Positions 14,528 to 17,775 of a stretch of DNA of 64,000 nucleotides are shown piece by piece. Source of the stretch: Solirubrobacter phytolaccae (GTDB taxonomy: Bacteria; Actinomycetota; Thermoleophilia; Solirubrobacterales; Solirubrobacteraceae). The DNA lies in contig NZ_JAPDDP010000007.1 of NCBI RefSeq assembly GCF_027587195.1, positions 62,001 through 126,000 on the forward strand, given 5' to 3'. Each line of letters begins with the position of its first letter. Within the stretch, counting starts at the first letter, position 1. Below the pieces are notes generated by a model. That model did not search any database and had not been told where the DNA came from. It worked only from the letters and a program-made list of their open reading frames with translations. The position numbers and the translations under genes were made by a program.

Positions 14528-15430
14528 GTGCCGGGGATTCGTGAGTATTGGTGGGGCCTGCCCGCGCTGCTGGTCGGCGTGGTGGCGATGATCCAGGGAG
14601 ACGTCGCGAGCTCCCGCCCGGCGGCGAACGTCGCGTTCTTCCTGCTCGGGTTCGGCGCCGTGCTGTTGATGCGTCGCGCGACGGTCAAGCCGGGAGCGTT
14701 CACCGGCGGCGTGCTGTGCCTCGTCCTGCTCGCGACCTTCCTGGGCGGTGGCAACGACGGCGTGCACCGCTGGATCGACGCCGGCCCGCTCTCGCTCGAC
14801 GTCTCGATGCTCGTCGCGCCGTGGGTGCTGGCGGTGATGGCGCACCTGCTCGCGCGCGGGCGCGTGGCCGGGGCGGTCGCCCTCGCCGTGCTCGTGCAGC
14901 TCGCGCTCCTGCTGCAGCCCGACGCCGCGCAGGGGTCCGCGTTCGCGGCGGGCGCGGTGGTGCTGTTGCTGATGAGCGCGGAGCGGTCTGGCGTCGTCCT
15001 CACCGGCGTCGCCGCCGTGGTGGCGATGGCGCTCGGCACGTTCTCGCGCCGCGACCCACTGGCGCCCGTGCCGGAGGTCGAGGGGATCGTCGGGCTCGCG
15101 CGGGATGCCGCGCCGTGGCTGGGGGTGGCCGCCGTCGTCGCCTGCGCGCTGCTCGCCGTGCCGTTCGTGCGCGCGGCGCTGCACGGCCGCAGCGCGCGTG
15201 AGCCGGTGGTCGGCGCGGCGCAGGCGGCGCTGTGCGCGTACGTCGTCGTGCAGCTGCTCGCGCCACTCGGGCTGGACGTCCCGGTGCCGGTGATGGGCTA
15301 CGGCGCGGCGACGGTGCTCGCCTACGCCGCGGCGTTCACGGCGAGCCTGGCGATGCCGCGGGACCGCGCGTTCAGCGGCCGGTCACGTGACCGGGCGGCT
15401 GTCCGGTCACGCGCCGGAACGCGGATGTGA
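14528..15430 (+). CDS. Short SEDS-like (FtsW/RodA-type) membrane protein
   Basis: About 300 residues with some 8-9 hydrophobic segments. Three stretches recall SEDS glycosyltransferases in order: HRWIDAGPLSLD (compare the family's RRWI-G-QPSE loop), LLLQPDAAQGSAF (compare LQPD-GTA), and PVPVMGYGAATVLA near the C-terminus (compare PF-SYGGSS). The catalytic Asp region is not clearly conserved and the protein is shorter than FtsW/RodA (about 370-400). It may be a degenerate or specialised paralogue. GTG 14528 follows a TAGGTT -10 by eight bases. The last 20 residues run over an AraC remnant on the other strand. Confidence 0.6.
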   Translation: MPGIREYWWGLPALLVGVVAMIQGDVASSRPAANVAFFLLGFGAVLLMRRATVKPGAFTGGVLCLVLLATFLGGGNDGVHRWIDAGPLSLDVSMLVAPWVLAVMAHLLARGRVAGAVALAVLVQLALLLQPDAAQGSAFAAGAVVLLLMSAERSGVVLTGVAAVVAMALGTFSRRDPLAPVPEVEGIVGLARDAAPWLGVAAVVACALLAVPFVRAALHGRSAREPVVGAAQAALCAYVVVQLLAPLGLDVPVPVMGYGAATVLAYAAAFTASLAMPRDRAFSGRSRDRAAVRSRAGTRM

Positions 15431-15560
15431 ACGCGCTCGGGTTGCGGTAGCCGACACGGCGCGCGACGGTCTCGACCGGCAGGCCGTCCGCGAGCATGCC
15501 GAGCGCGGCCGTCGAACAGCACCGCTTCGGCGCGGCGGCGCCGGGCCGGGAGCCACACTC
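15372..15560 (-). pseudogene. AraC-family regulator, C-terminal remnant
   Basis: On the minus strand the last 46 codons before the stop at 15372-15374 read as the second half of an AraC/XylS DNA-binding domain: LADGLPVETVARRVGYRNPS, then AFTSAFRRVTGQPPG. This is the signature helix-turn-helix with its conserved GY, PSAF and FRR-TG residues. Upstream in this frame the similarity stops abruptly. The adjoining sequence in another frame (RAEAVLFDGRARHARG) looks like its continuation, implying a frameshift and loss of the rest. No N-terminal domain remains between here and rpiA. Confidence 0.65.
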
Positions 15561-15677: not shown

Positions 15678-16334
15678 GTGAGCGTGACGACCAGCGAGGC
15701 GGAGAAGCACGCAGCCGCGACGTACGCCGCCGGCCTGGTGGAGGACGGGATGCGCGTCGGGCTCGGGACGGGCTCGACGGTCGCGCCGTTGATCCCGGTG
15801 CTCGCGGCGCGCGGGCTCAACCTGCGGTGCGTCGCGACGTCGGTGGCGACGGCGGAAGCCGCAGTCGCCGCCGGGCTGGTCGTCGAGTCGTTCGACGCGC
15901 TTCCCGAGCTCGACATCGCGATCGACGGGGCGGACCAGATCGCGCCGGGACCGTGGCTGATCAAGGGCGGCGGGCGCGCGCATACGCGGGAGAAGCTCGT
16001 GGCCGTGGCGGCCGCGCGGTTCGTGGTCATCGCCTCGCACGAGAAGCCGGTGCCGCGGCTCACGCCGCCCGTGCCGCTCGAGCTGCTCGCATTCGGGCTC
16101 GAGTCGACGCTGATGCGCCTCGGGCAGGCGACGGTCCGCGGTGGCGTGCTGAGCCCCGACGGCGGCATCATCGCGGACTGGACGGGCGCGTTCGACGATC
16201 CCGCGGAGCTCGCGCGCCGGCTGGACGCGGACCCGGGTGTGGTCGGCCATGGCCTGTTCGAGCCGGGCCTGGTCAGCGACGTCGTGGTCGCCACGGGCGC
16301 CGACGTCGAGCACACGCGGTTCGCTCGTCCGTAA
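15678..16334 (+). CDS. rpiA: Ribose-5-phosphate isomerase A
   Basis: About 218 residues, normal for RpiA. The phosphate-binding loop VGLGTGST is near residue 25, the acidic DGADQI motif near 80, and the KGGGRAHTREK motif carrying the catalytic region near 95, all in family order. It interconverts ribose-5-phosphate and ribulose-5-phosphate in the pentose phosphate pathway, in the cytoplasm. GTG 15678 is preferred because the upstream frame (from 15387) runs through the AraC remnant. Single gene; the next gene starts 26 bp downstream behind its own operator. Confidence 0.93.
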   Translation: MSVTTSEAEKHAAATYAAGLVEDGMRVGLGTGSTVAPLIPVLAARGLNLRCVATSVATAEAAVAAGLVVESFDALPELDIAIDGADQIAPGPWLIKGGGRAHTREKLVAVAAARFVVIASHEKPVPRLTPPVPLELLAFGLESTLMRLGQATVRGGVLSPDGGIIADWTGAFDDPAELARRLDADPGVVGHGLFEPGLVSDVVVATGADVEHTRFARP

Positions 16335-16357
16335 CCGGTATCAGCGCCTATGCTGGT
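16334..16357 (+). promoter_or_regulatory. CGNR operator/promoter, copy 1
   Basis: ACCGGTA (16334-16340), eight bases, then TATGCTGGT (16349-16357). The ends form an imperfect dyad (ACCgGtA/TgCtGGT), and TATGCT is placed as a -10 element six bases before GTG 16361. The same 24-bp architecture recurs at 16869-16892 before the next gene. Confidence 0.65.
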
Positions 16358-16360
16358 GAG

Positions 16361-16876
16361 GTGACGCTCGAAGATCCTCGCCCGCTACTCGGCGAGCCGC
16401 TGCCGCTGGACCTGCTGAACACTACGTGGATGACCGAAGCCGGGCTGCGGGACCTGCTCGCCGACGCGGCCGGCACGCGCCGGTGGCTCGACCACCACGG
16501 CCTGCGGGACGCGCCTGCCGAGGCCGGCCCGCTGCGGGAGACGCGGGAGGCGTTGCGCTCGCTCCTGCTGGACCGCGACGCGGTCGCGGGCGTCAACGCG
16601 GTGCTCGCGCGGGGTGGCCAGCGGCCGGTGCTCCGCGCGGGTCACGTCGAGACGGAGGTGGACGCGGAGCCGCAGTGGCGGGTGCCGTGGACGTGCGCCG
16701 CGCAGCTCGTCGCGCTGCTCGAGGCCCACGGCGAGCGGGTGCGGCCGTGCGCGAACCCGGACTGCGTCCTCTGGTTCCTCGACACGTCACGGCCGGGAAC
16801 ACGCCGCTGGTGCTCGATGGCGGCGTGCGGCAATCGCGACAAGGCAGTTCGTCACGGCCGCGTGCGTCACCGGTAA
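16361..16876 (+). CDS. CGNR zinc-finger protein (ABATE domain), probable regulator
   Basis: About 171 residues. The N-terminal part (PLPLDLLNTTW near residues 13-23, GLRDLL) is the ABATE domain seen in putative stress-induced regulators. The C-terminal 45 residues hold the CGNR finger: RPCANPDCVLWFLDTSR, then RRWCSMAACGNRDKA, with four cysteines for one zinc. CGNR proteins are thought to bind DNA. The duplicated dyads before this gene and before the next support autoregulation and control of the neighbour; that is inference. GTG start, predicted leaderless. Confidence 0.88.
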   Translation: MTLEDPRPLLGEPLPLDLLNTTWMTEAGLRDLLADAAGTRRWLDHHGLRDAPAEAGPLRETREALRSLLLDRDAVAGVNAVLARGGQRPVLRAGHVETEVDAEPQWRVPWTCAAQLVALLEAHGERVRPCANPDCVLWFLDTSRPGTRRWCSMAACGNRDKAVRHGRVRHR

Positions 16877-16892
16877 ATTCACTTATACTGGT
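16869..16892 (+). promoter_or_regulatory. CGNR operator/promoter, copy 2
   Basis: ACCGGTA (16869-16875), eight bases, then TATACTGGT (16884-16892), matching copy 1 in both half-sites and spacing but with an unrelated spacer. It overlaps the stop codon of the CGNR gene. TATACT is a good -10 hexamer for the gene starting at 16915. Confidence 0.7.
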
Positions 16893-16914
16893 GACCACGT
16901 GTAAGCTGGAAGGC

Positions 16915-17775
16915 ATGGGCTATCACGCGGGAGAACTTGCCGTGCAGCGGCGGGCGGGCGTCACGGGCGTCCCCTTCGGTGCGGAGACCGAGCTGCCGGA
17001 GGTCGCGCGCGACTTCCTCGAGGAGCAGCTGTGGCTCGTGCTCGGCGCCGAGGACGCCGAGGGTCGTGTGTGGGCGAGCGTGCTCTACGGCTGGCCCGGC
17101 TTCATCTCTAGCCCGGAGCCGCACAGCCTCGTCATCGCCTCCGAGCCGCTGCCGGGCGATCCGCTCACCGGAGCGCTCGACGGTCCCGTGGGCGGGCTCG
17201 CGATCGAGCCGAGCACGCGCCGCCGCCTCCGGCTCAACGGGCGCGCCACGAGCGCGGACGGCGAGGTCACGATCGCGCTCGAGCAGGTCTACGGGAACTG
17301 TCCGAAGTACATCACCGCGCGCGACGTCGAAGCCGTCGTCGAGGCCACGCCCGCGCCACCCGCGGCGAGCGGCGCGATCGACGCACGCGCGCGGCAGCTC
17401 CTCGCGGCCGCGGACACCGCGTTCGTCGCCACGCGCGGCCCCGACGGCCTCGACGTCTCCCACCGCGGCGGGCGTCCCGGCTTCCTCCAGGTCCGCGACG
17501 AGCGCACGATCGTCTGGCCCGACTATCCCGGCAACCGCATGTTCAACACGCTCGGCAACCTCGCGGCCGACGGTCGGTTGGGGCTCACGGTCGTCGACCC
17601 CGAGGACGGCACGACGCTCTACGTGACCGGCCGGGCGTCGATCCTCTGGGACGAGGCGCGCGCGGTCGAGCTGCGCGTCGACGCGGTCGTGCGACTCGAC
17701 CGGGCGGCGCCGCTCCGGTGGCGCTTCGAGCGCGCCGCGCGCAACCCGCCGCTCGAGACTGGTCAAGCGGCGTAG
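16915..17775 (+). CDS. Pyridoxamine 5'-phosphate oxidase-family flavoprotein
   Basis: About 286 residues. The central GNCPKYI motif (about residue 125) and a second split-barrel half (ADTAFVATRGPDGLDVSHRG, then VWPDYPGNRMFNTLGNL) are typical of the FMN-binding PNPOx-like group. These are often found beside redox-stress regulators. ATG 16915 has GGAAGG directly upstream. It is immediately downstream of the CGNR gene behind a copy of the same operator, so the pair is likely co-regulated. The reaction is unknown; members reduce or bind flavins, haem or F420. The 3' end overlaps the SLC13 gene by 13 bp. Confidence 0.85.
   Translation: MGYHAGELAVQRRAGVTGVPFGAETELPEVARDFLEEQLWLVLGAEDAEGRVWASVLYGWPGFISSPEPHSLVIASEPLPGDPLTGALDGPVGGLAIEPSTRRRLRLNGRATSADGEVTIALEQVYGNCPKYITARDVEAVVEATPAPPAASGAIDARARQLLAAADTAFVATRGPDGLDVSHRGGRPGFLQVRDERTIVWPDYPGNRMFNTLGNLAADGRLGLTVVDPEDGTTLYVTGRASILWDEARAVELRVDAVVRLDRAAPLRWRFERAARNPPLETGQAA

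What the first reader, a model, noticed from the sequence alone, without database searches (positions are those of the whole stretch)
16334..16892. Duplicated 24-bp operator controlling a CGNR regulator and its flavoprotein neighbour
ACCGGTA-N8-TATRCTGGT occurs with identical half-sites and spacing but different spacers before both genes, with the -10 hexamer built into the right half. Two such copies 535 bp apart mark a binding site. DNA targets of CGNR/ABATE proteins are little known, so this offers a concrete candidate.
Basis: partly seen in the sequence, partly recalled or inferred. Interest (0 to 1): 0.75.

Follow-up and report, generated by a model that had tools for sequence, protein, structure and literature searches.

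The report
DNA target site of CGNR regulators
Two matching DNA sites next to an uncharacterised regulator gene in a soil bacterium are examples of a mirror-image DNA pattern that recurs beside many genes of the same regulator family in several bacterial phyla, giving a family whose DNA target appears unreported a concrete and testable one.

Summary
In detail: both 24-bp sites are at the stated coordinates and are the only matches (up to 2 mismatches) in the 7.7-Mb Solirubrobacter genome. Each is a dyad, ACC-N18-GGT. In five Solirubrobacter relatives (four distinct sequences; CGNR 64-85% identical) the dyad recurs at the CGNR promoter although the upstream neighbours inspected differ. A second site of three half-sites, 18 bp apart, follows the CGNR stop and precedes a VOC gene that the window's strain has lost. 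Across 142 non-redundant CGNR/ABATE genes, AACC-N18-GGTT occurs upstream of 25 (0.5 in shuffles). Spacers of 17, 19 and 9 are also enriched. Held-out sets reproduce this. Base changes just outside ACC are mirrored in the opposite arm, and spacing follows protein clades. In 17 genomes, 10 of 15 exact TAACC-N18-GGTTA sites lie upstream of CGNR genes. Best explanation: the CGNR dimer binds this dyad and, probably as a repressor, controls itself and a neighbouring enzyme gene. Binding by the CGNR protein is inferred, and the sign of regulation is less certain.

The parts
16334..16357 (.). Operator O1, dyad ACCGGTA-N10-TGCTGGT (core ACC-N18-GGT), covering about -27 to -4 of the CGNR promoter; its first base is the last base of the rpiA stop codon
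   Evidence: same dyad in L004/L005, L006, L007, L008 although the upstream neighbours inspected differ
16349..16354 (+). -10 element TATGCT of the CGNR promoter, 6 nt before the GTG start (leaderless spacing TANNNT-N6-GTG), inside the right arm of O1
   Evidence: Sequence; TAWGCT-N6/7-GTG in the orthologues
16361..16876 (+). CGNR/ABATE regulator gene, 171 aa, GTG start
   Evidence: Pfam zf-CGNR 6.7e-18 and ABATE 1.4e-12; only PDB relative is 3h0n
16869..16892 (.). Operator O2a, dyad ACCGGTA-N10-TACTGGT, overlapping the TAA stop of the CGNR gene
   Evidence: corresponds to the upstream member of two overlapping dyads in the orthologues
16887..16910 (.). O2b, degenerate second overlapping dyad ACTGGT-N12-GCTGGA; intact (ACC-N18-GGT) in the relatives
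   Evidence: Alignment with L004, L006, L007, L008
16902..16907 (+). Probable -10 (TAAGCT) of the flavoprotein promoter, 7 nt before ATG; homologous to TATGGT/TAAGGT-N7-ATG of the VOC gene in relatives
16915..17775 (+). PPOX-type (pyridoxamine-phosphate-oxidase fold) flavoprotein gene, 286 aa, MSMEG_1061-like, predicted target gene
   Evidence: Pfam PNPOx_N 1.7e-14, best NCBIfam TIGR04025 but below its cut-off; linked to CGNR genes in Actinomycetota and Bacillota loci

Best explanation
The sites are operators of the adjacent CGNR/ABATE protein. A CGNR dimer binds a dyad whose outer arms are (N)ACC and GGT(N'). In this clade they are 18 bp apart, so the arm centres are 21 bp, two helical turns, apart on one face. 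In the window, O1 covers -27 to -4 of the gene's own leaderless promoter. O2 lies over and just upstream of the -10 of the next gene, a VOC-PPOX operon in relatives and PPOX directly here. The most likely action is local repression of itself and the downstream enzyme gene, relieved when the ABATE domain binds an unknown ligand. Shown here: the dyad, its conservation, its link to CGNR genes, mirrored base changes and clade-dependent spacing. Inferred: that CGNR is the protein that binds, that it binds as a dimer, repression, and ligand release.
For: Only two sites in 7.7 Mb. In the Solirubrobacter orthologues every promoter region has ACC-N18-GGT: one at CGNR, two overlapping at VOC, in four distinct sequences, with differing upstream neighbours. 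AACC-N18-GGTT upstream of 25 of 142 non-redundant CGNR genes against 0.5 in shuffles and 0 in coding controls; ACC-N17-GGT 37 against 11.8; AACC-N19-GGTT 7 against 0.5; AACC-N9-GGTT 6 against 0.5; other spacings near background. Held-out sets: 11 of 75, 6 of 21 and 4 of 13 against 0.54, 0.28 and 0.17. No N17-19 excess near 29 MarR genes (AACC/GGTT 0) or 498 other reading frames. Mirrored variation at the base outside ACC: N17 26 of 46 against 11.4 permuted, N18 41 of 58 against 31.4. Spacing follows CGNR phylogeny: 15 changes against 25.5 shuffled, 0 of 500 as low. 10 of 15 exact TAACC-N18-GGTTA sites in 17 genomes lie upstream of CGNR genes (compared with the gene positions). Partner genes differ (VOC, PPOX, alpha/beta hydrolase, amidase, transporters), so the shared element is CGNR. 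Jann_2411 is a dimer with a treble-clef finger predicted to bind DNA (PMC2954205).
Against: No binding or expression data. More than half of the CGNR genes show no perfect dyad under these rules, some probably because half-sites differ (for example TAACG-N18-CGTTA in rhizobial loci). Spacing and phylogeny could correlate through inheritance of the whole locus. Twelve of 52 dyads contain TTGACA in an arm pointing away from CGNR, which places the dyad over and upstream of a -35, a position that an activator could also use.
Confidence: 0.85

Rival explanations
1. Same operator, but CGNR is an activator: the dyad recruits RNA polymerase to promoters that have no good -35 element.
For: The Solirubrobacter promoters show no obvious -35, and in other loci the dyad overlaps and extends upstream of TTGACA, as class II activator sites do.
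Against: O1 spans about -27 to -4 and includes the -10, a position typical of repressors. In loci with a consensus TTGACA an activator is less needed.
Confidence: 0.2
2. The dyad is bound by another regulator (a TetR- or MarR-type protein, or a global factor), and CGNR genes are merely among its targets.
For: Binding by CGNR is not demonstrated; similar dyads are bound by many HTH families (general knowledge).
Against: Strict genomic sites concentrate at CGNR genes. Half-site bases and spacing change with CGNR clade. Partner genes differ between loci. In the window's genome two paralogues carry their own variants: TTACC-N18-GGTAA (L212) and TAACC-N19-GGTTA (L226).
Confidence: 0.07
3. The repeat is a promoter architecture (extended -10 leaderless promoter) or a local duplication without a specific regulator.
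For: TATRCT lies in the right arm; the sites border stop codons.
Against: In loci outside Solirubrobacter the dyad sits away from the -10. Left arms far from the -10 are equally conserved. Covariation and the phase-specific spacing N17-19 are not promoter properties. Spacer sequences differ, so it is not a recent duplication.
Confidence: 0.04

Closest known systems
ABATE / CGNR zinc-finger family (Pfam PF07336 / PF11706), Jann_2411, PDB 3h0n (PMC2954205)
   Same: Same two domains with the CGNR signature and four zinc cysteines; predicted dimeric, ligand-responsive transcription regulator
   Different: The structure paper names no DNA target. Here a target dyad is proposed with conserved geometry, clade-dependent spacing and partner genes
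Local autoregulated one-component repressors of detoxification genes (TetR and MarR families; general knowledge)
   Same: Regulator beside or divergent from its target enzyme or exporter, dyad operators over both promoters, ligand-sensing domain fused to the DNA-binding domain
   Different: DNA-binding domain is a treble-clef zinc finger, not a helix-turn-helix. The conserved arm core is a short (N)ACC separated by 17-19 bp, with a 9-bp-spacer variant

Membership tests
CGNR/ABATE regulators (PF11706 + PF07336) | C-terminal treble-clef zinc finger with CGNR motif and four Cys | tested here: met
   zf-CGNR 6.7e-18 over residues 126-165; sequence C130..C135..C151..C156-GNR
CGNR/ABATE regulators (PF11706 + PF07336) | N-terminal ABATE domain | tested here: met
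   PF07336 1.4e-12, residues 13-121; PDB relative 3h0n
CGNR/ABATE regulators (PF11706 + PF07336) | Dimer that binds DNA | not testable with these tools
   Dimer reported for Jann_2411; dyad symmetry of the sites is consistent with it
Autoregulated local one-component repressor | Dyad operator overlapping its own promoter and that of an adjacent gene | tested here: met
   (promoters assigned from sequence only)
Autoregulated local one-component repressor | Regulator lowers transcription; ligand relieves it | not testable with these tools
   Only operator position supports it
Autoregulated local one-component repressor | Operator co-varies with the regulator across the family | tested here: met
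   Spacing and flanking base follow CGNR clade

The most novel reading that the evidence does not exclude
CGNR/ABATE proteins are a large zinc-finger family of one-component regulators that read a common dyad, (N)ACC-N(17-19)-GGT(N'), with one clade using a 9-bp spacer. Clade-specific changes in one flanking base and in spacing insulate paralogues from one another within one genome.
Probability: 0.7. Interest if true: 0.75.

Novelty: new variant of a known kind. Interest (0 to 1): 0.62.

Why it matters
CGNR/ABATE proteins were predicted to bind DNA in 2009, but the papers held here report no target site. A recurrent dyad with a spacing and base code lets regulons be predicted from sequence for a family with up to 12 copies per genome in the set searched here. 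It makes the question of what these zinc fingers recognise directly testable by gel shift. The partner genes (VOC, PPOX, alpha/beta hydrolase, amidase, exporters) suggest that the family controls local detoxification or metabolite-handling enzymes.

Tried and rejected
Searching for close copies of the 24-mer in distant loci found little; the general signal is the ACC-N18-GGT geometry. A motif-agnostic inverted-repeat scan with 6-bp arms gave only a broad excess at N16-N21 and high counts in coding controls, so it was not used as evidence. Literature searches for a CGNR or DUF1470 DNA target found only the Jann_2411 structure and papers that mention the family in passing; the library lacks most subscription journals. 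In the tree labels, L117 (N9) and L012 (N17) carry chance or secondary dyads, and their better sites are N18.

Full report
Observation. Both sites are present exactly as described. In the host genome (7.74 Mb, genus Solirubrobacter by its relatives) they are the only matches at up to two mismatches. Read as a dyad, each is ACCGGTA-N10-TRCTGGT, with the core ACC-N18-GGT and 21 bp, two helical turns, between arm centres.

Genes. 16361-16876 encodes a 171-aa protein with ABATE and zf-CGNR domains, whose only PDB relative is Jann_2411, 3h0n. 16915-17775 encodes a PPOX-type flavoprotein. Upstream is rpiA, whose stop codon abuts the first site.

Orthologues. CGNR genes 64-85% identical in five Solirubrobacter relatives (L004 to L008; L004 and L005 have the same CGNR promoter) carry the dyad at the same place before the start codon: ACCGGTGTCAGTGCCTAAGCTGGT, ACCGCTGTAGCGCCCTATGCTGGT, ACCGGTGTTCGAGGCTAAGCTGGT and ACCTGAAAAGATGCCTATGCTGGT. 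The gene upstream is rpiA in the window, but by inspection of the flanks it resembles an aldo/keto reductase in L004 and differs again in L007 and L008, so the site is not explained by conserved neighbouring sequence. After the CGNR stop, the four relatives compared have two overlapping ACC-N18-GGT dyads sharing one ACCGGT, followed by TATGGT or TAAGGT, 7 nt and the ATG of a VOC gene, then PPOX. The VOC gene is absent from the window's genome and from G003, and present in the other five genomes of the genus. In the window the second dyad is decayed (16887-16910) and aligns without gaps, which puts the -10 of the flavoprotein gene at TAAGCT 16902-16907, 7 nt before ATG. Both genes have the TANNNT-N6/7-start spacing of leaderless transcripts (inference from sequence).

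Family. Upstream regions of more distant CGNR genes showed the same geometry with other half-sites, often TAACC-N18-GGTTA and often two copies. I then collected 178 CGNR genes (142 below 70% identity) from Actinomycetota and, through other loci, from Bacillota, Pseudomonadota and Acidobacteriota. AACC-N18-GGTT lies upstream of 25 (shuffle mean 0.5, coding control 0), TAACC-N18-GGTTA of 16 (0.0), ACC-N18-GGT of 43 (12.8), ACC-N17-GGT of 37 (11.8). AACC-N19-GGTT is in 7 (0.5) and AACC-N9-GGTT in 6 (0.5); nearly all other spacings are at background. Sets fetched after the idea was formed, or for another reason, reproduce it. MarR genes and 498 other reading frames show no such excess.

Symmetry and co-evolution. 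Among ACC-N17-GGT sites the base just outside ACC is mirrored in 26 of 46 (11.4 when permuted), and among N18 sites in 41 of 58 (31.4): TAACC/GGTTA, TGACC/GGTCA, TCACC/GGTGA and TTACC/GGTAA all occur. This mirrored variation is what a symmetric dimer would impose. Spacing classes follow the CGNR protein tree (15 changes against 25.5 shuffled, none of 500 as low); N17 is mostly one clade and N9 mostly another. Descent of whole loci contributes to this, but the proteins are highly diverged. The tree was built in the quick mode and many inner branches are weakly supported.

Specificity. In 17 CGNR-bearing genomes the exact TAACC-N18-GGTTA occurs 15 times. Ten are upstream of CGNR genes (G476, G702, G703, three in G706, four in G704) and one is about 600 bp downstream of another (compared with positions). 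CGNR upstream regions are well under 0.1% of those genomes (my estimate from 81 genes).

Targets and mechanism. Genes starting beside the dyads include VOC, PPOX, alpha/beta hydrolases, amidases and transporters (identified by inspection of their sequences, VOC and PPOX by tblastn). CGNR is the only shared gene. O1 covers about -27 to -4 including the -10, which favours repression and autoregulation. In other loci a TTGACA lies inside a dyad arm (12 of 52), compatible with repression or with class II activation. I put repression at about 0.7 to 0.75 given that CGNR binds. The ligand of the ABATE domain is unknown.

Literature. The structure paper reports a dimer, a finger predicted to bind DNA, and a proposed stress-related role, but no target sequence (PMC2954205). 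No other paper in the held library gives one. Novelty is therefore judged against that library and my own knowledge only.

Noticed in passing
window 16877-16914; VOC genes in L290-L294: The VOC (glyoxalase-fold) gene that lies between CGNR and PPOX in five Solirubrobacter relatives has been lost from this genome; PPOX now directly follows the operator.
   Followed up: yes
window 15372-15480, minus strand: A reading frame ends in an AraC-like helix-turn-helix tail (VETVARRVGYRNPSAFTSAFRRVTGQPPGHVTGR) in the region before rpiA; it looks like a fragment of a regulator gene.
   Followed up: no
G429:C1:6698161-6698188 and G703:C661:1187-1214: Near-perfect palindrome TAACCCTGCAAA-N4-TTTGCAGGGTTA in two actinobacterial genomes, not at a listed CGNR gene; probably the site of a different regulator.
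   Followed up: no
L130, L212, L226, L228, L230, L232: The window's genome has seven CGNR genes; at least three of the others carry their own dyad variants (N9 TAACC/GGTTA, N18 TTACC/GGTAA, N19 TAACC/GGTTA).
   Followed up: partly
L178, L181, L182; L166: CGNR genes from proteobacterial (mostly rhizobial) genomes have dyads with a changed core, TAACG-N18-CGTTA or TAACT-N18-AGTTA, not counted in the statistics.
   Followed up: partly
L153, L136, L249/L254/L257 and L252/L256/L258/L259: Some CGNR loci have three or four dyads in a row, most of them a few tens of bases apart, suggesting cooperative arrays.
   Followed up: no
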